Below, piece after piece: positions 8,481 through 19,532 of a DNA stretch of 64,000 nucleotides (its first letter is position 1; each line of letters begins with the position of its first letter). Origin of the DNA: Thermococcus paralvinellae (GTDB lineage Archaea > Methanobacteriota_B > Thermococci > Thermococcales > Thermococcaceae); NCBI RefSeq assembly GCF_000517445.1, contig NZ_CP006965.1, positions 1,154,681-1,218,680 of the forward strand, in the 5' to 3' direction. The position numbers were made by a program, and so were the translations under genes. Under the pieces are notes generated by a model that saw only the letters and a list, made by a program, of their open reading frames with translations, searched no databases and had not been told where the DNA came from.

Positions 8481-9626
8481 GTGTTCAACTGCGTGATAGT
8501 GAGATACGGTGAGATTGGAACAAAATCAAGGCAAACGAGAAAATGGTTCGAGAGCATATTGATCAACAACATCAGGGAAGCTTTAGTCAGTGAGAGTATT
8601 GATTATAAGAGCGTTTTTGCGAAGCATGGGAGGATAATAGTCAAAACAAATAGAGCGAAGGAGAGTATAGACGTCCTAAAGCGGGTATTTGGAATTGTTT
8701 CCCTTTCCCCAGCGATGGAAATTGATGCTGAGCTGGAGAAAATCAATAAAACCGCTTTAAAGCTCTTCCGCAAAAAGAAGAGAGAGCTTAATTTGGAAAA
8801 ACCGAAGTTCAGAGTTACAGCAAGACGAATTACAAAAGAGTTTCCTCTGAAAAGTCCAGAAATCCAAGCTAAAGTTGGTGAATATATTCTGAAAAATGAC
8901 GAAGCTGAGGTGGATTTGAAAAACTACGACATTGAGGTCGGCGTTGAGCTAATGGAAGGAAAAGCGTACATCTTTGTGGACAAAATTAAGGCTTGGGGAG
9001 GTCTTCCCATAGGAACTCAGGGAAAAGTTGTTGCCCTGCTCAGCGGTGGGATAGATTCTCCCGTGGCAGCATTTCTCATGATGAAAAGAGGCTGTGAAGT
9101 CATTCCAGTTCACATATACATGGGAGAAAAAACCCTCGAAAAAGTCAGGAAAATTTGGAATCAGCTCAAAAAGTATCACTACGGTGGAAAAGCGGACCTC
9201 ATTGTAATTAAGCCAAAAGAAAGGGAAAAGATCATAGAGAAGCTCAAGGGGCTCAAAAAAGAAAACTATACTTGTGTCTTCTGCAAGTTTATGATGGTCA
9301 AAAATGCTGATAAGATAGCGAGGGAGTTTGGAGCTAAAGGCATCGTTATGGGAGACTCCCTCGGACAGGTTGCATCTCAAACGCTGGAAAATATGTATAT
9401 TGTTAGCCAAGCGAGTGATCTACCTATTTACAGGCCACTTATAGGAATGGACAAGGAAGAAATAGTAGAAATAGCAAAAAAAATAGGTACTTTTGAACTA
9501 TCGACGCTTCCAGAGGATGAAGTTCCATTCATTCCAAAACATCCAGTGATTAGAGGTTCCTGGGAGGAATTCAAAAAGCTCTACAGAGAAATCTTTGGAG
9601 AAGAGCCTAAAAAGAGAGGCTGCTGA
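8481..9626 (+). CDS. thiI: tRNA 4-thiouridine synthase ThiI
   Basis: 381 residues: N-terminal ferredoxin-like part, THUMP domain (~55-168) and PP-loop ATPase with SGGIDSP (187-194). It makes s4U in tRNA and may also serve thiamine thiazole synthesis. There is no rhodanese domain, as usual in archaea; instead C265 and C268 (CVFC) match the CXXC that holds a cluster in methanogen ThiI. The GTG start has GGGGTGAG upstream. The C-terminus PKKRGC ends in cysteine. It is followed after 21 bases by a shorter paralogue. Confidence 0.92.
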   Translation: MFNCVIVRYGEIGTKSRQTRKWFESILINNIREALVSESIDYKSVFAKHGRIIVKTNRAKESIDVLKRVFGIVSLSPAMEIDAELEKINKTALKLFRKKKRELNLEKPKFRVTARRITKEFPLKSPEIQAKVGEYILKNDEAEVDLKNYDIEVGVELMEGKAYIFVDKIKAWGGLPIGTQGKVVALLSGGIDSPVAAFLMMKRGCEVIPVHIYMGEKTLEKVRKIWNQLKKYHYGGKADLIVIKPKEREKIIEKLKGLKKENYTCVFCKFMMVKNADKIAREFGAKGIVMGDSLGQVASQTLENMYIVSQASDLPIYRPLIGMDKEEIVEIAKKIGTFELSTLPEDEVPFIPKHPVIRGSWEEFKKLYREIFGEEPKKRGC

Positions 9627-9647: not shown

Positions 9648-10241
9648 GTGAAGGCTGTTGCTTTGCTCAGCTCAGGAATAGATTCACCCGTAGCTATTTA
9701 CCTGATGCTAAAAAAGGGTCTAGAAGTAATTCCAATTCACTTCAAGCAGGATGAGAGTAAGTATAGGAAAGTTCAGAAAATTTGGAAACGACTTAGGGAG
9801 CTCTATCCTAAAAGGCTGAAAGAGCTAGTCGTCGTTGATGTCTATGAATATCAAGCGCCTGTTTTTGAAAAGCTTATTGAGCTGAAAAAACACAAATGGA
9901 TTTGTGTCTTTTGTAAATTCACCATGTACAAGAAAGCCACAGAGATAGCAAAAGAAAATGGAGCATGGGCGATTATAACTGGGGATTCTTTAGGACAAGT
10001 GGCATCACAGACCCTTGATAATCTGGTCATAATTTCATTAGCAACAGATTTACCCATCTTAAGACCTCTGATTGGATTTGATAAAGAGGAAGTTGTGAAA
10101 ATTGCTAAAGAGATTGGAACATTTGATATAAGCATTGAGCCTGAGGAAGGCTGTCCTTTTGTGCCAAAGCATCCAATAATTAGAGGCTCGTTGGGAGAAT
10201 TCAAGAAAGTTCACGAGGCTGTTTTTGGAACCCCTTGTTAA
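9648..10241 (+). CDS. Stand-alone PP-loop protein, paralogue of the ThiI catalytic half
   Basis: 197 residues that align along the whole length with ThiI residues ~180-380 of the gene just upstream: SSGIDSPVAIYLM, the CVFCKFTM CXXC, GDSLGQVASQTL, PEEGCPFVPKHP. It lacks the THUMP domain, so it needs another way to find RNA or acts on a different substrate. GTG start after GAGGTGATGAAATA. It looks like a tandem duplication followed by loss of the N-terminal half, with all visible catalytic residues kept. A sulfur-transfer role, perhaps as a partner of ThiI, is inference. Confidence 0.72.
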   Translation: MKAVALLSSGIDSPVAIYLMLKKGLEVIPIHFKQDESKYRKVQKIWKRLRELYPKRLKELVVVDVYEYQAPVFEKLIELKKHKWICVFCKFTMYKKATEIAKENGAWAIITGDSLGQVASQTLDNLVIISLATDLPILRPLIGFDKEEVVKIAKEIGTFDISIEPEEGCPFVPKHPIIRGSLGEFKKVHEAVFGTPC

Positions 10242-10318: not shown

Positions 10319-11228
10319 ATGAATGTGTTTTCAAATACACTTGAGCTTTATGAAAACTTTAAGCCAACCCCCCTAGTTAGGCTTTCACTTTCAGATGAGA
10401 GGGGGGATGTATTTTGCCAAGCTAGAGTTCTTTAACCCCTTCAGCAGAAGCATAAAGGACAGAGCTGTTTTCAACATGCTCATGAAGGCCAAGCAGAGAA
10501 AGGAAATAAACGGAAAGAACAAGCTTTTTGAGGCCACTTCTGGGAATGTTGGAATTGCAATGGCATCTTTGTCAAATATACTTGGAGTCAAATTTAGAGC
10601 ATATTTACCAAAGCCAACTCCAGAGACAACAGAGATTCTGCTAAAAGTTCTTGGTGCAGAAGTCATAAGGACAGAGTTTGAGACCATAGATCCCACAATG
10701 GTAGAATTTGTGAAAAAGGAAGCTGAAAAAAACGATGCAGTGAATTTAAACCAATTTGAAAATGAGGATAACTTTGAGGCACACTACAAATATACTGCAA
10801 GAGAAATCGATGAGCAGCTGAGGAGTATAGGGAAAAAGCCAGATGTCATAGTAGCAGGAATAGGAACTTCTGGCCACATAGCTGGATTAGCGAAATATTT
10901 CAAGGAACGTTATGATACAAAAATAGTCGGAGTAGTCCCAGCAAAAGGAGAAAAGATCCCAGGGATAAAGCGTTTAGAAACAAAGCCAAAATGGGTTCCA
11001 AAAGTTAAGATAGACGAAATAATCGAAATAACCCAGAGAGAAGCAATTGAAGGTTCCATAAAGATTGCAAGGAGAGATGGACTACTGATTGGCTTAAGTG
11101 CTGGTGCTGTCGTAAAGGCTCTGGAGAAGATCAGAGACAAATACAATGGGACAGCAGTGTTAATATTTCCAGACGATGGATTTAAATATGTAGAGATCTT
11201 TGAGAGATACCTAAGTGGTGAGATATGA
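10319..11228 (+). CDS. PLP-dependent cysteine synthase family enzyme, interrupted by a one-base frameshift
   Basis: The gene starts at the ATG at 10319 behind GGTGAT and a good TATA box. The first frame reads MNVFSNTLELYENFKPTPLV and on to DERGDVF, which holds the family's N-terminal TPLVRL, then stops at an early TAA. The second frame from ~10395 continues YFAKLEFFNPFSRSIKDRAV with the PLP lysine, ATSGNVGIAMA and GIGTSGHIAG. The join is the run of six G at 10401-10406; five G would give one ~300-residue protein. The family makes cysteine or related amino acids from O-acetyl- or O-phosphoserine. Sequencing error, true mutation or slippage remain open. The second frame alone would lack the substrate loop. 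Confidence 0.75.
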
Positions 11229-11530
11229 AGCTAGCTGTGTATCTGCTGTTCCTTCAGGCGTTCTTTTTACTCTATTATTATGTTAGTGAGAGAATAGTGG
11301 TTTACCTTCTGTTTGGTGTGTTGAATTTTGTCTTGGCTTGGGCTATTCTTAAAGGAGAAAAAAGAGCTATTAAGATAACTCTAGCCTATAAGGGGCTGGA
11401 TTTATTTTTCTCCATTTTGATGTTAATGAGTGGAGTTTTGAGTGCTGGAATAAGTGGATTAATAGACTTCCTGATTATCCACGATTTAGTGGGTTTGTTT
11501 GGAAAGAATGTGAATGAGCCCCCTACTTAA
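11225..11530 (+). CDS. Small integral membrane protein, unknown function
   Basis: 101 residues, nearly all hydrophobic: three to four membrane segments separated by short charged turns (SERIVV, KGEKRAIK). Its ATG overlaps the stop of the cysteine synthase gene (ATGA), so it is translationally coupled. No family recognised. Its last eight bases overlap the end of the convergent zinc-ribbon gene. Confidence 0.6.
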   Translation: MKLAVYLLFLQAFFLLYYYVSERIVVYLLFGVLNFVLAWAILKGEKRAIKITLAYKGLDLFFSILMLMSGVLSAGISGLIDFLIIHDLVGLFGKNVNEPPT

Positions 11531-12461
11531 CGCTTACTTTTTCAGGTATCAGCCTCATCAGTGCATCTTTGAGCTCGAAATATCCATCCTTTTCAATGCT
11601 GAATTTTGCCTTTTTGATTTTTCCTTTCTTTGGGTTTCTATATCTGATTTCAATTCCCGAGCTAATCCATCCCTTGCTGAGCTTAACTTCAACGATGTAT
11701 TCGTATGGATAAAAGAGTTCTGGGAGAAGGATGCCATCGGCACTTACAGGTCCTTTAGCTATGCCATCCCTCATGACACAAATATAGCGGTCAGGGCCAA
11801 GATAATCCTCAAGCTCCCTTGCTTTTGCAAGAATTTTACTTTTCTCAGCCTCTTCTTCGGCTTCCTTTATTTTCCTCTCCCATTCTTCAAAGAGTTTCTC
11901 ATCGGTGTAGAATCGTTCAATTAAGTTCATAGCCTCTTTATAACCTGCGTTCGAGGATATATCAAAAGCAGCCTCAAGTGCTCTGACACCTCCCTGGAGC
12001 AGGTAAGTCCCGTCCGGATTTAGATAAATGAACAGTGTGCCTTCTTCTCTGTCAATTATCATTGTGACTGGATGCTTCTTTCCTTTAATAATGTCCTTTT
12101 TATCCTTTTTTGAATATTCTCTCGGAAGTTTTGCAAAAACTTCCTGTATTTCGTTTAGTGTTAATTCTCCAAGGCTTATTGTCCTATTTTCTCCCGTAAA
12201 TTTTTCTAAATTACCAGAAACTCCAAAAACCTCTACCTTACACTTAGTTTCTCTCCTGAAAAACTTCCCGTCAACTTCTGGTACTTTTTCAACATGGTCT
12301 ACAACCTTTAATTTTTCTTCTAGTTTCCCTTTCTTTTCTCCTTCTCTTGGGATTCCTTGTACAATTCCAAGCTTTTCTTTGACCTTCCTCAGATCATAAC
12401 CACAGACAGGACAAAAATCAAACTCCTCATCAACTTCTGTACCGCATTTGGGACAGAACAC
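11523..12461 (-). CDS. Zinc-ribbon protein, paralogue of the divergent neighbour
   Basis: 312 residues opening with a double-CxxC ribbon, CPKCGTEVDEEFDFCPVCG. A basic/acidic linker leads to a domain shared with the gene at 12736-13752: a GVSGNLEKFTGEN...LGELTLNEIQEVFAKLP block followed by HPVTMIIDREEGTLFIYL, then a Glu/Lys-rich helix and a beta-rich end. No enzyme motif seen; function unknown. GTG start behind GGGGGTGG. The binding site touches the base of a 14-bp hairpin at 12474-12509. Confidence 0.65.
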   Translation of the reverse strand: MFCPKCGTEVDEEFDFCPVCGYDLRKVKEKLGIVQGIPREGEKKGKLEEKLKVVDHVEKVPEVDGKFFRRETKCKVEVFGVSGNLEKFTGENRTISLGELTLNEIQEVFAKLPREYSKKDKKDIIKGKKHPVTMIIDREEGTLFIYLNPDGTYLLQGGVRALEAAFDISSNAGYKEAMNLIERFYTDEKLFEEWERKIKEAEEEAEKSKILAKARELEDYLGPDRYICVMRDGIAKGPVSADGILLPELFYPYEYIVEVKLSKGWISSGIEIRYRNPKKGKIKKAKFSIEKDGYFELKDALMRLIPEKVSVK

Positions 12462-12473
12462 TTTTCCACCCCC

Positions 12474-12509
12474 TTAAGTCGAAAACCCAAGAAGAGGTTT
12501 TCGACTTAA
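12474..12509 (-). promoter_or_regulatory. Leader hairpin upstream of the minus-strand zinc-ribbon gene
   Basis: A perfect 14-bp inverted repeat (TTAAGTCGAAAACC and its complement) around an eight-base loop, TCTTCTTG on the transcript strand. It ends where the GGGGGTGG ribosome site begins, 13 bases before the GTG start. A similar hairpin stands before the divergent paralogue. The AT-rich stretch 12510-12680 between them holds no ORF and presumably the two promoters. Confidence 0.65.
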
Positions 12510-12680
12510 AGAGTTGTGAATTATGTTCGGCTCATAGCTTTTGTTTTGTAATGTTTATTTTTATATAATTAAAGATTTTTTTAACTATAAGTTTTACAAT
12601 ATTTGTTAATAACTTTTAGATTATGTAAAACTTATTAGAATGTACTTTATCAACTAACTATTGAATAGTGTAACACATTA

Positions 12681-12716
12681 TGGGTCGAAGGCCTCTTCTG
12701 TGAGGTTTTCGGCTCA
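12681..12716 (+). promoter_or_regulatory. Leader hairpin upstream of the plus-strand zinc-ribbon gene
   Basis: TGGGTCGAAGGCC (12681-12693) pairs with GGTTTTCGGCTCA (12704-12716) over 13 positions if G-U pairs are allowed, leaving loop TCTTCTGTGA. Compared with the hairpin of the other gene, two A-U pairs became G-U and one C side changed, while pairing is kept. Only four bases separate it from the GGAGGGG ribosome site. Confidence 0.65.
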
Positions 12717-12735
12717 TTAGTGGAGGGGATAAGAA

Positions 12736-13752
12736 GTGCCCCATAACTTCAAATTTTGTCCTTACTGTGGGGGAGAGCTTAGGGGAGATTTCAGGTTCTG
12801 TCCATACTGTGGAGCATCCCTTGAGATAACCAAAGCTACCAGAGAGATTACTAAATCTGACAACACTATAAGAACAGAACCCAAGATAGAGCCTGAAAAA
12901 GTTCTTAAACCTCAAACTGTAGCTGAACCAGAAGGATTCCAAAAAAGGTTTTCTCTAAGTTATATCCCAGCTGGTAGGGTCACCTCAAAGGAGAAAAAGC
13001 TAAACATCTATGTTAGTGGAGTTAATAAGAATCTCGTTTTCGACGGATCAAAGGGAACTAAATTCGGGAAGTTAAGGCTTGATGAAGCCCTAAGACTCTT
13101 TGAAAAACTTCCAAAGTCATATCCGCGGCCACTCTCAAAGAATGACAATCCCATACAATTTGAAGTAGATCACTGTCTCCACATAGGACTGGCTTCCATA
13201 GAAGAGCTAAGATATAGAATTGTTGCAATTATAAGCTCTGAACATATTTATGCAGGGTCAATTGTATTTACAATTCTAGAAAACGCAAGTTACAATGAAG
13301 CGGTTGAGGCAATAAAAAGGTATTATAGGGAGGGGAATGAATTTCTCAAAAATGCATATAAGGCCAAAGAGAGGCACTTAGAAGAAAAAGAGACATCGGA
13401 GGGCAAATATCTTCTTAAAATACCTGGAGTCTTTATAAGATACGACACTGAGGTATATATGTCCTCGGCACTTTACCTTGTAAAGGAGGGACTTAAGTTC
13501 TACGCCCATGATGGGAATTATCTTTACATGGAAATGCCCGAAGATCTACCATATTTTGCAAGGGAAGGTATCCAGAAGATCAAATTCAATAAAAAATACA
13601 CAGAAATGGAGGTAACCTACAGAGATGATAACGGCAGAAAGAAGACTTTCAAATATGTCTTTCTCATGCCCGAAGAGGGAAGGAGATATTATCGAGTTCT
13701 TTCATCTGAATTCCCGGGAAAAGTTAAAGTTGGTGGAGGTTGGTTTGGATGA
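12736..13752 (+). CDS. Zinc-ribbon protein, paralogue of the divergent neighbour
   Basis: 338 residues. Ribbon CPYCGGELRGDFRFCPYCG at the start, then a charged linker and the same core as the 11523-12461 protein (VSGVNKNLVFDGSKG, FGKLRLDEALRLFEKLPKSY). The later part is beta-rich with aromatic residues (SALYLVKEGLKFYAHDGNYL). No catalytic motif. GTG start behind GTGGAGGGG. It overlaps the next gene by four bases (ATGA), and both are followed by the large secreted protein, so the three may form one operon. Confidence 0.65.
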   Translation: MPHNFKFCPYCGGELRGDFRFCPYCGASLEITKATREITKSDNTIRTEPKIEPEKVLKPQTVAEPEGFQKRFSLSYIPAGRVTSKEKKLNIYVSGVNKNLVFDGSKGTKFGKLRLDEALRLFEKLPKSYPRPLSKNDNPIQFEVDHCLHIGLASIEELRYRIVAIISSEHIYAGSIVFTILENASYNEAVEAIKRYYREGNEFLKNAYKAKERHLEEKETSEGKYLLKIPGVFIRYDTEVYMSSALYLVKEGLKFYAHDGNYLYMEMPEDLPYFAREGIQKIKFNKKYTEMEVTYRDDNGRKKTFKYVFLMPEEGRRYYRVLSSEFPGKVKVGGGWFG

Positions 13753-14036
13753 GCAGATTGTCCTATGTAGGTGCTGCTATGCCTGGACTGGGTCTTATGC
13801 TAAGCTCTTGGGGTCAGAAAGTCCTCTGGGAAAGATCAGCAGGAACGAGTGGAGTTACGTATACGGGATTTCCAGCATATGCGATCCTCATTGGCTACAT
13901 AATAGTTTTCGTTGGTGCAATAATCTGGGTCGCTGATTTGAAGTTCAACACACCGAGTGATGAGTTCAGAAGAACACTCTTAGTGTCATTTGGCATATTT
14001 TTCCTCGTGGGCTTTTTGGCAGTTGTACTTGTGTAG
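13749..14036 (+). CDS. Small membrane protein coupled to the zinc-ribbon gene
   Basis: 95 residues from the ATG at 13749, which overlaps the upstream stop and has GGAGGTTGG before it. Three hydrophobic segments: residues ~5-18, 38-58 (AYAILIGYIIVFVGAIIWV) and 74-94 (LVSFGIFFLVGFLAVVLV). No family recognised. Translational coupling suggests it works with the zinc-ribbon protein or the secreted protein downstream. Confidence 0.6.
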   Translation: MSRLSYVGAAMPGLGLMLSSWGQKVLWERSAGTSGVTYTGFPAYAILIGYIIVFVGAIIWVADLKFNTPSDEFRRTLLVSFGIFFLVGFLAVVLV

Positions 14037-14054
14037 ACGTGGGGAGGACTGAGT

Positions 14055-16820
14055 ATGAGAAAACTCCTCGTGGGGTTATTAGTTTTTATGATGATGGCAC
14101 TTGCGGTGCCTGAAGTTGAAAGTGAAGAAAGATATTGGATAAAGATGTACAGTGAAGGTGATAGAGAGAGCGGAAATGCCGTTGCAGTCGCTCCAGATGG
14201 TGACCTCATAATTGTAGGCACAAGGTACTCTAAGGGGAACTTTTATGATGCTTGGGTTATCCGATTAGACCCAAATGGAGGAATAAAATGGCAAAAAAGC
14301 TATGGTGGGGAAGATAACGATGAAGCCAAAGCAGTTGCTGTTGCTGAGAACGGTGATATCATAGTTGCTGGGGTTACACAAAGCCATGGTGAAGGAAACG
14401 GTGACATCTGGATTCTCCGGCTTGACACGTGGGGAAACGTTAAATGGCAGAAAACCTATGGAAGTAAGGAAGCAGAGGATTGCTGGGATGTTGCTGTAAC
14501 TAAAGAGGGAAATATTATTGTTGTAGGTAAAACAGAAAATAGCGTTTGGATTCTGATGCTTCATGGTGATGGAAATATCGGATGGCAAAAGAAGTATGAT
14601 GGATATGTTTCAAGTTATGAGTCCTCAATGGCGTTGGCCAATAACGGAGACATAATTATAGCAACCTCAATTCGTCACCCTGAATGGGATGATAGCGTGT
14701 GGGTTCTTAGGCTGAATCATAATGGAAGTGTAATATGGCAGAAAGCCTATGGTGGAGACAGTACGTATTATGCCTATGATGTCGCAGTTGTTGAGAATGG
14801 AGATATAATTGTGGCAGGTCAAACCTATGATATCAAAGACAAATGCTTCAAGGCATGGGTAATTCGTTTAAACGCAAATGGGAACATACAGTGGCAGAAA
14901 AGTTATGGAAGCGATAAAGAATACAATGAAATGAAGGAATACAGGATCAATGCAATTGAAGTCCTAAAGAATGGAGATATTATCTTGACAGGAACAACCG
15001 AAAGAAAAAGTCTCAATCCCAATGCTTGGATTTCCAAGATTGATTCCAATGGAAACATAAAGTGGCAGAAGTCCTACGGCAGTTTAAGCAATACTGAGAT
15101 AAAAGACGTTGTCTCCACAGCGAACGGTAATGTTTTTGCAGTTGGAGTGAGTGCACTTAAGATGCTTCTCATTAAAATCCCTCCAGATGGGAGATTTCCA
15201 GATTGTGAAAACTACAAGGACTCCAAGGCATTAGCAAAGAACACAAACGTTAAAATTGGAAGTGTAAAGGTCAGCATAAGGCCTATTTTTGCAAAGGTTA
15301 ACCGTACAAAAGCTCAGGTCAAAAACACAAACGCAGAAGTTAAGACAAAGTGTTCCATGGTCCTGACTACACCAACCCATACGCCCAAAGGGTCCACAAT
15401 AGAAACTCCCACAGGATGGGCAAGGAGCTATGGTGGAAAATATTATGATGAAGCCAGAACAGTCGCAGTAACACCCGAAGGAGACATCATAGCAGCTGGA
15501 ACAACTGAAAGCTTTGGTACTGGAAATTACGACCTCTGGGTTATTAGACTCGACAGCGAAGGAAACATCAAATGGCAGAAAACCTACGGAGGTAAGGGAG
15601 ATGATAGCGCTTATGCTGTTGCAGTGGCTTCAAACGGTGATATAATCGTCGCAGGCTCAACCTCGAGCTTTGGTGCTGGGGATTACGACCTCTGGGTTCT
15701 CCGCTTGGACAAGAACGGCAACATACGGTGGGAGATGACCTATGGAGGGGAGTATGGAGAAGGAGCCTTGGGAGTGGCGTTAGCATTAAACGGCGACATT
15801 ATTGTAGCTGGCTACACTGGAGGCTTTGGTGCTGGAGATTATGATGTCTGGATGCTTCGCTTAGATTCTGCTGGTAATGTGAAGTGGCAAAAAACATATG
15901 GTGGAGAAGATGAAGATGTTGCACTAGATGTTGCTATTGTTAAGAGCAGCGATATAGTTGTTGGGGGCTACACCTACAGTTTTGGAGCGGGTAAAGAAGA
16001 TGCCTGGGTTCTATATTTGGACGGCAATGGAAATGTTAAATGGCAGAAAACATACGGAAGAGAAGGTGAAGACGAAATCTGGGCAATTAGTGCAACTGAG
16101 AATGGAGATATAGTTGCAGCTGGGTACACAACAAGCTTTGGTGCCGGTAATGAAGATGTTTGGGTTCTTAGGATTGATGACAGAGGGGAGATCATATGGG
16201 AGAAGACCTATGGAGGGGAATATGGAGATATAGGTATGGGAATTGAGGAAATCAATAGAAAGATAGTTGTAACAGGCATTACCCAAAACTTTGATGTACA
16301 GACCGTGGGGGCACTCGTTCTGTATTTAGATGAAATGGGCAACATGCTCTGGGGAAAAGTCTGTGAGGGTGGAGAAATGAGGGTTTGGGAAGTTTCAGCT
16401 ACTGATAGCAGTGTTGTAACTGCAGGATACATAAAGACTCCAGAGGGAAATGAAGATTTGTGGGTTCTCAAGCTTTCTCCTGAGGGAGCCTCCCAATGCG
16501 CTATGTGCTGGAAGGTGAAAGCCGAAAGTGAAGATACCAGTGCCAAAATAAGGAACTCGGAGGCACAAGTTGAAAACACGAAAGGAGAAGTTAAAGGATC
16601 AAGAGCACGTGTAAAAGTAAGTGATGCAGAGAGTAATGTGCAATGCACCCTAGAAAGCATGGGAAAACAACCCGTAAAAGAGACAATAAGTGAACAAAGT
16701 GAGAGCTGGACTGCTACAGAAGAGACATATCCAACCCCAGAAGAAGAGGAAGAAGGGGGAATATGTGGACCCGGAATTATTATATTGTTGGGCCTTATTG
16801 CAATAGTTTTGAGGAGATAA
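14055..16820 (+). CDS. Large secreted beta-propeller-like repeat protein with CGP-type C-terminal anchor
   Basis: 921 residues. Signal peptide (KLLVGLLVFMMMALAVPEV), then two arrays of ~50-residue repeats of the form WVLRLDxxGNIKWQKTYGG...A..NGDIIVAGYT, about six or seven before and seven after a mid-linker at ~residues 390-440; these would fold as two propellers. A short imperfect repeat rich in Val, Lys and Asn (AKVNRTKAQVKNTNAEVK) appears in the linker and again near residue 830. The tail has an acidic stretch, then GGICGPGIIILLGLIAIVLRR, a membrane anchor related to the CGP-CTERM of Thermococcales. Probably displayed on the cell surface; ligand unknown. Confidence 0.8.
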   Translation: MRKLLVGLLVFMMMALAVPEVESEERYWIKMYSEGDRESGNAVAVAPDGDLIIVGTRYSKGNFYDAWVIRLDPNGGIKWQKSYGGEDNDEAKAVAVAENGDIIVAGVTQSHGEGNGDIWILRLDTWGNVKWQKTYGSKEAEDCWDVAVTKEGNIIVVGKTENSVWILMLHGDGNIGWQKKYDGYVSSYESSMALANNGDIIIATSIRHPEWDDSVWVLRLNHNGSVIWQKAYGGDSTYYAYDVAVVENGDIIVAGQTYDIKDKCFKAWVIRLNANGNIQWQKSYGSDKEYNEMKEYRINAIEVLKNGDIILTGTTERKSLNPNAWISKIDSNGNIKWQKSYGSLSNTEIKDVVSTANGNVFAVGVSALKMLLIKIPPDGRFPDCENYKDSKALAKNTNVKIGSVKVSIRPIFAKVNRTKAQVKNTNAEVKTKCSMVLTTPTHTPKGSTIETPTGWARSYGGKYYDEARTVAVTPEGDIIAAGTTESFGTGNYDLWVIRLDSEGNIKWQKTYGGKGDDSAYAVAVASNGDIIVAGSTSSFGAGDYDLWVLRLDKNGNIRWEMTYGGEYGEGALGVALALNGDIIVAGYTGGFGAGDYDVWMLRLDSAGNVKWQKTYGGEDEDVALDVAIVKSSDIVVGGYTYSFGAGKEDAWVLYLDGNGNVKWQKTYGREGEDEIWAISATENGDIVAAGYTTSFGAGNEDVWVLRIDDRGEIIWEKTYGGEYGDIGMGIEEINRKIVVTGITQNFDVQTVGALVLYLDEMGNMLWGKVCEGGEMRVWEVSATDSSVVTAGYIKTPEGNEDLWVLKLSPEGASQCAMCWKVKAESEDTSAKIRNSEAQVENTKGEVKGSRARVKVSDAESNVQCTLESMGKQPVKETISEQSESWTATEETYPTPEEEEEGGICGPGIIILLGLIAIVLRR

Positions 16821-18110: not shown

Positions 18111-19532
18111 TCACTCCCCTTCAACCTTCTCCAGATATTTTACGTATTGAACAAGACCGGCTAAAGCCCTAACTCCCCTCTCAGGTGTTGGATATACTGG
18201 AACTCCTTTCTCCTCAAGCAGCTTTGCATAATACTCCGTCTTTTTACCACCCATTGCAACTGCCACTATTGGCTTCTCACTCTTCTTTGCATAGTCCGCT
18301 AAGATTTCAATAATTTCCTCTTCGTTAAGAAGCGGCACTTGGAAGAGAACTATTACTAGAATAGCATCAACATTCGGGTCATTTACAAAGCCTTCAATCG
18401 CAATCTTGTATCTTTGAGCGTCGGTATCTCCCACGACGTCAGTTGGGTTACCAGCGACTGCATGTGGTGGGAAGTTCTCCTTAAGGAACTTGAGAGTCTC
18501 TTCACTGAGCTGCGCCATCTTTAAGCCAAATTTAGCAACTGCATCACTTGCCATGACTCCAGCTCCACCACCATCAGTGATTATCCCAATCCTATCACCC
18601 TTTGGAAGCTTGCACTTTGCAAAGGCCTTAGCGACATCAAACATGTGCTCAAAGTCTTCAGCTCTAATTATTCCAGTTTGCTTGAAGACTGCATCGTAAA
18701 TAACATCCGCCCCTGCCAATGAACCAGTGTGTGATGAGGCAGCTTTTGCTCCATACTCAGTTCTTCCACTCTTCAGTGCAATGACGGGTTTTACTTTTGT
18801 TATCCTCTTTGCAGCTTCAATGAACTTTCTACCATCCTTAACTCCTTCAATGTAGAAAGTAACGACTTTAATTTGGTCGTCATAAATGAAGTAGTCCATT
18901 AAATCAGCATCGTCTACATCTATTTTATTACCATAGCTGACCATTTTTCCGATTCCTATCCCAGCCAAAGCAGCCCAGTCAAGCATTGCTGCTGCGAAAG
19001 CTCCACTTTGAGAAACAAAAGCTATTGGGCCGCTCTTTGGCCTGTCCATTTTTTCTTCTGGTAAAAAAACAGTGTCTACACCTGTGTCTGGAACATAAAC
19101 ACCAACACAGTTTGGCCCAATAATTCTAATTCCGTTTGCCTTTGCTATTTCATAGATCTCCTTCTCTAGTTTTTTCCCTTCCTCACCAAGCTCTCCAAAA
19201 CCACCTGTTATTATGATAACTGCTTTGATACCTTTTTCTGCAATGTCCTTCATTGTGGCTGGGACAAATGGTGCAGGAATAGAGATGACAGCTAAGTCTG
19301 TGTCGTCAGGAAGTTCTTTAACACTCTTATAGACTTTATATCCATCGATTTCATCAAGCTTTGGATTTACGGGGTAAATATTGCCTTTGAAGATCCCAAG
19401 CTCTTTGTTCCTCTTGAAGTTCTCAAAAATGACGTTTCCAACCTTTCCTTTTTTGTTCGTTGCTCCGATAATAGCAACTGCCTTTGGTTCAAAAAAAGGT
19501 TTTAATTCTTCAACGATTTTTGGCGTTTCCAT
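18111..19532 (-). CDS. acdA: ADP-forming acetyl-CoA synthetase, alpha subunit
   Basis: 473 residues: CoA-binding Rossmann domain (PKAVAIIGATNKKGKVGN), then two succinyl-CoA-ligase-like domains. The phosphorylated histidine lies in SSHTGSLAGAD, and GPNCVGVY and SQSGAFAAAMLDWAA mark the CoA/phosphate site. It forms the heterotetramer with the beta subunit encoded immediately downstream. ATG at 19532 follows AAGGTGATAGAA; a GTG nine bases earlier is inside that site. The order alpha then beta in one transcript differs from the archaeal cases where the two subunits lie apart. Confidence 0.9.
   Translation of the reverse strand: METPKIVEELKPFFEPKAVAIIGATNKKGKVGNVIFENFKRNKELGIFKGNIYPVNPKLDEIDGYKVYKSVKELPDDTDLAVISIPAPFVPATMKDIAEKGIKAVIIITGGFGELGEEGKKLEKEIYEIAKANGIRIIGPNCVGVYVPDTGVDTVFLPEEKMDRPKSGPIAFVSQSGAFAAAMLDWAALAGIGIGKMVSYGNKIDVDDADLMDYFIYDDQIKVVTFYIEGVKDGRKFIEAAKRITKVKPVIALKSGRTEYGAKAASSHTGSLAGADVIYDAVFKQTGIIRAEDFEHMFDVAKAFAKCKLPKGDRIGIITDGGGAGVMASDAVAKFGLKMAQLSEETLKFLKENFPPHAVAGNPTDVVGDTDAQRYKIAIEGFVNDPNVDAILVIVLFQVPLLNEEEIIEILADYAKKSEKPIVAVAMGGKKTEYYAKLLEEKGVPVYPTPERGVRALAGLVQYVKYLEKVEGE

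What the first reader, a model, noticed from the sequence alone, without database searches (positions are those of the whole stretch)
12461..12736. Two divergent zinc-ribbon paralogues share a conserved leader hairpin
Both genes (11523-12461 minus, 12736-13752 plus) are preceded, right before the ribosome site, by a stem GTCGAAxxCC with loop starting TCTTCT and the arm GGTTTTCGxC. Between the two copies, pairs change from A-U to G-U while the stem (13-14 bp) is kept, which points to RNA selection and not a DNA operator. In the minus-strand copy the stem base touches the GGGGGTGG site. A translational switch, perhaps bound by the zinc-ribbon proteins themselves, would be a new kind of archaeal leader control.
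Basis: partly seen in the sequence, partly recalled or inferred. Interest (0 to 1): 0.78.

Follow-up and report, generated by a model that had tools for sequence, protein, structure and literature searches.

The report
Conserved mRNA leader hairpin, Thermococcus zinc-ribbon genes
Two back-to-back zinc-ribbon genes in a heat-loving archaeon each start with a long RNA hairpin right before the ribosome landing site; relatives keep the hairpin of one gene while its letters change, so it is probably a real but clade-specific switch or tuner of translation whose trigger is unknown.

Summary
The two hairpins are the two longest uninterrupted stems in the 64-kb window (16 pairs at 12680-12717 plus; 19 pairs at 12470-12513 minus, with 14 Watson-Crick pairs at 12474-12509). 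Each lies 0-4 nt upstream of a Shine-Dalgarno (SD) sequence. Four related Thermococcus genomes carry the same divergent pair. The plus-gene hairpin is present in all five genomes. A covariance model built without the most divergent genome (G087) still found its hairpin, at the orthologous place, as that genome's best hit. Stem changes almost always keep pairing, internal non-Watson-Crick pairs are nearly all G-U, and every sense strand folds better than its antisense strand. This supports selection on RNA, not on a DNA palindrome. Promoter elements place transcription starts upstream of both hairpins.

The interpretation needs trimming. The minus-gene hairpin exists in only two genomes and looks like a local copy. 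No other gene in 94 Thermococcaceae genomes carries the element. Nothing shows that the zinc-ribbon/PH-like proteins bind RNA, and archaeal autogenous leader control is known (L7Ae). Best reading: a locus-specific cis-acting leader hairpin that tunes SD access, possibly autogenously; absent from Rfam, but a new variant of a known kind.

The parts
12680..12717 (+). Leader hairpin of the plus gene: 16 pairs (4 of them G-U), 6-nt loop
   Evidence: in all five genomes with the gene pair
12692..12699 (+). CCTCTTCT at the top of the 5' arm and loop, identical in all seven copies
   Evidence: alignment A3
12722..12728 (+). Shine-Dalgarno GGAGGGG of the plus gene, 4 nt after the hairpin
   Evidence: sequence
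12736..13752 (+). Plus gene: zinc ribbon plus alpha/beta domain plus C-terminal PH-like domain, 338 aa, GTG start
12625..12637 (+). Putative BRE/TATA (GTAAAACTTATTA) of the plus gene, conserved in five genomes; predicts a start near 12660, upstream of the hairpin
   Evidence: alignment A1; 23-bp TATA-to-TSS distance from PMC4247193
12470..12513 (-). Leader hairpin of the minus gene, 19 pairs including G-U; core palindrome 12474-12509, 14 Watson-Crick pairs
   Evidence: also in G090
12490..12497 (-). CCTCTTCT of the minus hairpin
12466..12473 (-). Shine-Dalgarno GGGGGTGG of the minus gene, abutting the hairpin and paired in the predicted minimum-energy fold
11523..12461 (-). Minus gene: paralogous zinc ribbon plus PH-like protein, 312 aa, GTG start
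12561..12568 (-). TATA-like TTATATAA, one of two candidate promoters of the minus gene (start near 12538); the other is the symmetric BRE/TATA at 12587-12598 (start near 12564). Both lie upstream of the hairpin
   Evidence: sequence, inverted repeat I3; inference
13740..14036 (+). Small membrane-like protein overlapping the plus gene; present in exactly the five genomes that hold the pair

Best explanation
Each hairpin lies in the transcribed 5' leader of its gene, directly upstream of the ribosome-binding site. SHOWN: an RNA hairpin of 14-19 pairs with an invariant CCUCUUCU at its top is conserved before the plus gene in five Thermococcus genomes, with pairing kept through substitutions. In two of these genomes a copy stands before the divergent paralogue. 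It occurs before no other gene. INFERRED: it is a cis-acting element that modulates translation initiation. In the minus copies the extended stem pairs with the SD itself. In the plus copies the stem ends 2-4 nt before the SD, and weaker outer pairing covers the nucleotides just 5' of it. Predicted stability is small at 80-95 C, so a bound factor or a temperature change could shift the open/closed balance. INFERRED, weaker: since the element exists only with this gene family, the factor is more likely encoded at the locus (autogenous or cross-control by the zinc-ribbon proteins) than a general RNA-binding protein with many targets.
For: Folding z-scores and strand asymmetry: the sense strand is more stable than the antisense in all seven copies, for example -24.1 against -9.8 and -22.4 against -7.9 kcal/mol. 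Conservation: a covariance model built without G087 scores the six training copies at 59.7 bits or more, and finds the held-out G087 leader hairpin at 22.2 bits as the best hit of its genome at the orthologous site. Elsewhere in 94 genomes nothing exceeds 21.1 bits, apart from the reverse strand of the same hairpins (up to 28.5 bits). Pairing: 108 alignment cells are 95.4% paired against 59% or less when slid by one column. In my hand alignment 21 of 24 non-Watson-Crick cells are G-U and the other three are at helix ends. Simulated neutral substitutions break 4-5 pairs where 1 is broken (P 0.009-0.035 for the three most divergent comparisons; only 0.08-0.4 for close ones). Rarity: the two longest stems in 64 kb. 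SD unpaired probability is 0.16-0.21 for minus copies and 0.27-0.44 for plus copies at 37 C, rising towards 0.6-0.7 at 95 C. Promoter elements are conserved upstream.
Against: No transcript start, structure probing or expression data were available. Only seven copies from one genus, not all independent, so only two or three pairs change on both sides and shuffle controls for those counts are not exceptional. The minus gene lacks the hairpin in G092 and G087, so it is not needed for that gene. In the plus copies the SD is not clearly buried. No RNA-binding domain was recognised in either protein. A constitutive role (5'-end protection, keeping the SD open) fits much of the evidence as well.
Confidence: 0.55

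Rival explanations
1. Constitutive mRNA structure: the hairpin shields the 5' leader from 5'-to-3' decay or keeps the AU-rich leader from masking the SD. It sets a fixed expression level and senses nothing.
For: It sits 0-4 nt before the SD and about 20 nt from the predicted 5' end. In plus copies the stem itself ends just before the SD without covering it. Shape is conserved more than 5'-arm sequence.
Against: The invariant CCTCTTCT, half of it in the loop, and the nearly fixed 3' arm imply sequence recognition beyond structure. A general stabiliser should occur before other genes, but nothing comparable is found in 94 genomes. In minus copies the SD is paired.
Confidence: 0.25
2. Autogenous switch: a zinc-ribbon protein binds the hairpin(s) and represses its own and its paralogue's translation. 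(This is a specific form of the best explanation.)
For: The element co-occurs strictly with the gene family and with no other gene. E. coli L31/L31p is a precedent for zinc-ribbon paralogues acting through a leader hairpin (PMC9825181), and L7Ae for archaeal autogenous leaders (PMC6298567).
Against: No RNA-binding domain beyond a short generic zinc ribbon; the C-terminal domain is PH-like by fold, with weak matches. The minus leader has no hairpin in two genomes, so joint control of both genes would not be general.
Confidence: 0.2
3. RNA thermometer: the SD-pairing stem melts over the growth temperature range.
For: Predicted stability falls to about -2 to -6 kcal/mol at 85 C and to near zero at 95 C. 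SD exposure in minus copies rises from about 0.2 at 37 C to about 0.3 at 85 C and 0.6 at 95 C.
Against: Extrapolated energies at such temperatures are unreliable. Plus copies do not bury the SD well. The invariant loop is not expected of a thermometer. Almost any hairpin behaves like this at 85-95 C.
Confidence: 0.1
4. DNA operator: an inverted repeat downstream of each promoter bound by a dimeric transcription factor.
For: The G000 minus copy is a perfect 14-bp palindrome. The two copies are arranged symmetrically around the divergent promoters. The loop plus 3' arm is identical over 21 nt between the two G090 copies.
Against: Plus copies are imperfect DNA dyads, but their internal mismatches are G-T on the strand that forms G-U pairs, and antisense folds are much weaker. 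The 3' arm occurs once in the genome at 2 or fewer mismatches, apart from one chance-level hit; the reversed control has three.
Confidence: 0.08

Closest known systems
L7Ae autoregulatory leader stem-loop of archaea (PMC6298567)
   Same: Archaeal 5'-leader stem-loop next to the ribosome-binding site of its own gene; folding governs access to it.
   Different: L7Ae leaders contain a kink-turn that folds only on L7Ae binding. Here the stem is uninterrupted, has no kink-turn, and the genes are not l7ae.
E. coli L31/L31p leader control (PMC9825181)
   Same: A leader hairpin through which zinc-ribbon protein paralogues regulate translation.
   Different: Bacterial ribosomal proteins with an asymmetric internal loop essential for regulation. 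Here the proteins are not ribosomal and the stem is continuous. Sequence homology was not seen, and binding is untested.
Archaeal riboswitches seen in Thermococcales (fluoride crcB, preQ1; PMC4247193)
   Same: Structured long 5' leaders in the same order of archaea.
   Different: No Rfam match. A single hairpin without junction or pseudoknot leaves little room for a ligand pocket.

Membership tests
L7Ae kink-turn leader | 3-nt bulge followed by tandem G-A pairs in the leader stem, upstream of l7ae | tested here: not met
   Uninterrupted 14-19 bp stems, no kink-turn; proteins are zinc ribbon plus PH-like
Known Rfam leader or riboswitch families | Match to a covariance model of Rfam 15 | tested here: not met
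   Only one chance-level match in 11000-14200 at E up to 5, not at the hairpins
Intrinsic terminator or attenuator | GC-rich hairpin followed by a run of U | tested here: not met
   Hairpins are followed by SD and start codon, no T run
Palindromic DNA operator | Dyad symmetry conserved at the DNA level | tested here: not met
   Plus copies have G-T mismatches conserved as G-U pairs; antisense folds weak. Met only by the G000 minus copy taken alone
Dispersed palindromic repeat | Many copies per genome | tested here: not met
   Two copies in the own genome, both at this locus
RNA thermometer | SD buried in a stem that melts in the physiological range | tested here: inconclusive
   Minus copies in silico yes, plus copies only partly; needs measurement
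Autogenous mRNA leader (product binds own leader) | Protein product binds the hairpin and represses translation | not testable with these tools
   Only exclusive co-occurrence of element and gene family
Zinc-ribbon protein | Two CPxCG knuckles at the N-terminus | tested here: met
   PF13240 above its curated cut-off in both window proteins; the four cysteines invariant in nine homologues

The most novel reading that the evidence does not exclude
A zinc-ribbon/PH-like protein of one Thermococcus clade binds a CCUCUUCU-topped leader hairpin and, perhaps depending on zinc or membrane state, switches its own and its divergent paralogue's translation. That would be an archaeal protein-RNA autoregulatory circuit outside the ribosomal-protein/L7Ae class, with the paralogue brought under control by a local copy of the hairpin.
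Probability: 0.18. Interest if true: 0.75.

Novelty: new variant of a known kind. Interest (0 to 1): 0.5.

Why it matters
Experimentally supported regulatory 5' leaders are very few in archaea; the T. kodakarensis transcriptome study (PMC4247193) says so explicitly. Here is a compact, comparatively supported leader element absent from Rfam. One of the genomes that carries it (G087) has the chromosome length I recall for T. barophilus MP (from memory, unverified); a gene disruption system exists for T. barophilus (PMC5852573). If it proves regulatory, it gives a simple model for translational control in a hyperthermophile. The apparent copying of the hairpin to the divergent neighbour would show how such an element can recruit a second gene.

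Tried and rejected
Rfam search of the locus: nothing relevant. Other genes with the element in 94 Thermococcaceae genomes: none above noise. Virus contigs: five pattern matches; the model finds no hairpin there, so chance. Plasmids: no homologue of the plus protein. Defence families (PADLOC): no convincing match. Fold comparison to find an RNA-binding domain: only weak PH-like matches; the middle domain was not identified. An anti-SD idea, in which the loop segment CCUCUUC pairs with the gene's own SD: duplex energies -7.6 to -12.7 kcal/mol. Rejected as evidence because any CCUC pairs with any GGAGG and the stem would have to open first. A loop-to-start-codon pseudoknot (CUUCU with AGAAG before the start) is visible in G000 and G091 but absent in G092, so not conserved.

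Full report
WHAT IS THERE. The window lies in a 1.96-Mb single-contig genome of the Thermococcaceae; close relatives are titled Thermococcus sp.. From memory only, this size fits T. paralvinellae ES1, and the 2,010,078-base chromosome of relative G087 fits T. barophilus MP; neither was verified. Two divergent genes, 11523-12461 (minus) and 12736-13752 (plus), are separated by 274 bp. Each intergenic end carries a hairpin: minus strand 12474-12509 (14 Watson-Crick pairs, extending to 19 pairs at 12470-12513 with G-U pairs) and plus strand 12680-12717 (16 pairs). Sense-strand fold z-scores are -6.95 and -4.45. They are the two longest uninterrupted stems (loops 3-10 nt) on either strand of 64 kb.

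HOMOLOGUES. The divergent pair occurs in five genomes of the same genus (G000, G087, G090, G091, G092) and in no other of 94 Thermococcaceae genomes. The exception is one distant homologue in G001 that carries an N-terminal extension; no hairpin was found in front of it. The flanking genes are collinear where the contigs reach, and a small membrane-like gene overlapping the plus gene is present in exactly the same five genomes. The plus-gene hairpin is present in all five. The minus-gene hairpin is present in G000 and G090 only. G092 and G087 have an unstructured minus leader, and G091 lacks the minus leader and start; its plus frame is also interrupted by a stop, so that draft genome should be read with care.

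SELECTION ON RNA. A covariance model was built from six copies without the most divergent, G087. Searched over 94 genomes it gave 59.7-70.3 bits for the training copies. The held-out G087 leader scored 22.2 bits (E 0.0016 for that genome), exactly at the orthologous place. Apart from the reverse strand of the same hairpins (up to 28.5 bits), nothing else exceeded 21.1 bits. The G087 margin over noise is thin by score alone; the position is what makes it convincing. In the alignment 95.4% of stem cells are paired, against at most 59% when the partner column is slid. In the hand-corrected alignment nearly all changes keep pairing (for example 3 of 3 between G000p and G092p, 6 of 7 between G092p and G087p). 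Among 24 non-Watson-Crick cells 21 are G-U and the other three sit at helix ends. Neutral simulations give P of 0.009-0.035 for the three more diverged comparisons and are uninformative for close ones. Counts of pairs changed on both sides are low (2 of 16) and not above shuffles. The argument therefore rests on preserved pairing, G-U bias and strand asymmetry rather than on classical covariation. The asymmetry is clear: in all seven copies the sense strand is more stable than the antisense, by 1.2 to 14.5 kcal/mol, the smallest difference being the perfectly palindromic G000 minus copy.

SEQUENCE-SPECIFIC PART. CCTCTTCT is identical in all seven copies. In four of the five plus copies the 3' arm GAGGTTTTCGGCTCAT is identical, while the 5' arm varies within pairing. 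The two G090 copies share 21 identical nucleotides over loop and 3' arm. This pattern suggests that something recognises the loop and the 3' arm, and also that the minus hairpin arose by a local inverted copy or conversion (inference).

LEADER STATUS. BRE/TATA-like GTAAAACTTATTA (12625-12637) is conserved in all five plus leaders. With the 23-bp TATA-to-start distance reported for T. kodakarensis (PMC4247193), transcription should start near 12660, giving a leader of about 76 nt that contains the hairpin. The T. kodakarensis median is 16 nt. Two candidate minus promoters (12561-12568 and the symmetric 12587-12598) both lie upstream of the minus hairpin. I saw no TATA-like box that would place a start inside or downstream of either hairpin; this was judged by eye and not scored.

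HOW IT MAY WORK. In the minus copies of G000 and G090 the extended helix pairs CUCU/CUCC and CAC with the SD (unpaired probability 0.16-0.21 at 37 C). In plus copies the stem stops 2-4 nt before the SD, with weaker outer pairing to the GUGG just 5' of it (unpaired 0.27-0.44). Extrapolated to 85-95 C the hairpins are marginal. The paper on L7Ae leaders shows a related logic: a leader stem-loop that folds on protein binding and then hides the ribosome site (PMC6298567). The best-supported statement is a locus-specific cis-acting leader hairpin that tunes ribosome access. Autogenous control is possible because no other gene carries the element, but it is unproven.

PROTEINS. Both proteins begin with a CPxCG...CPxCG zinc ribbon (PF13240 above its cut-off). 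AlphaFold models (mean pLDDT 79 and 77, low-confidence linkers at about 31-68) show an alpha/beta middle domain and a C-terminal seven-strand-plus-helix unit that Foldseek places with PH-like domains, weakly. No RNA-binding domain was recognised. The family is restricted to this genus apart from the G001 homologue; elsewhere in the phylum only the zinc ribbon matches.

MOSAIC LOCUS. The minus protein of G000 is 97% identical to that of G090, but its plus protein is closest to that of G092 (77%, against 61-64% for G090). The plus end of the intergenic region also resembles G092. A recombination between lineages inside or near this intergenic region is the simplest reading.

VERDICT. The minus copy is a lineage-specific addition. 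Self-binding by the zinc-ribbon proteins is an open hypothesis with a fair experimental path. This is a new leader RNA element of a known general kind.

Noticed in passing
12587-12598 and 12624-12635: Perfect 12-bp inverted repeat ATAAGTTTTACA / TGTAAAACTTAT, 25 bp apart, overlapping the plus BRE/TATA; it could be two symmetric divergent promoters or an operator.
   Followed up: partly
12526-12535 and 12708-12717: TTCGGCTCAT, the end of the plus hairpin's 3' arm, is repeated near the predicted 5' end of the minus transcript, where the minus RNA would be antisense to it; not conserved in G090.
   Followed up: partly
11523-13752, L029, L030: Mosaic ancestry: the minus gene is closest to G090 (97%), the plus gene closest to G092 (77%), suggesting recombination in the intergenic region.
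   Followed up: partly
L032:353-1431: In the draft genome G091 the plus frame has an internal stop and the minus gene lacks its start and leader; decay or assembly error.
   Followed up: no
14055-16820: Large delta-60-repeat (beta-propeller type) protein with a weak CGP-CTERM sorting-signal match downstream of the plus gene; related DNA downstream in G092 and G087, no such match near the pair in G090 and G091.
   Followed up: no
8481-9626 and 9648-10241: Two adjacent ThiI-like genes, the second a shorter paralogue resembling the C-terminal half of the first (named from the translated sequence; not searched).
   Followed up: no
19070-19104: The only other uninterrupted stem of 13 or more pairs in the window (13 pairs, minus strand).
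   Followed up: no
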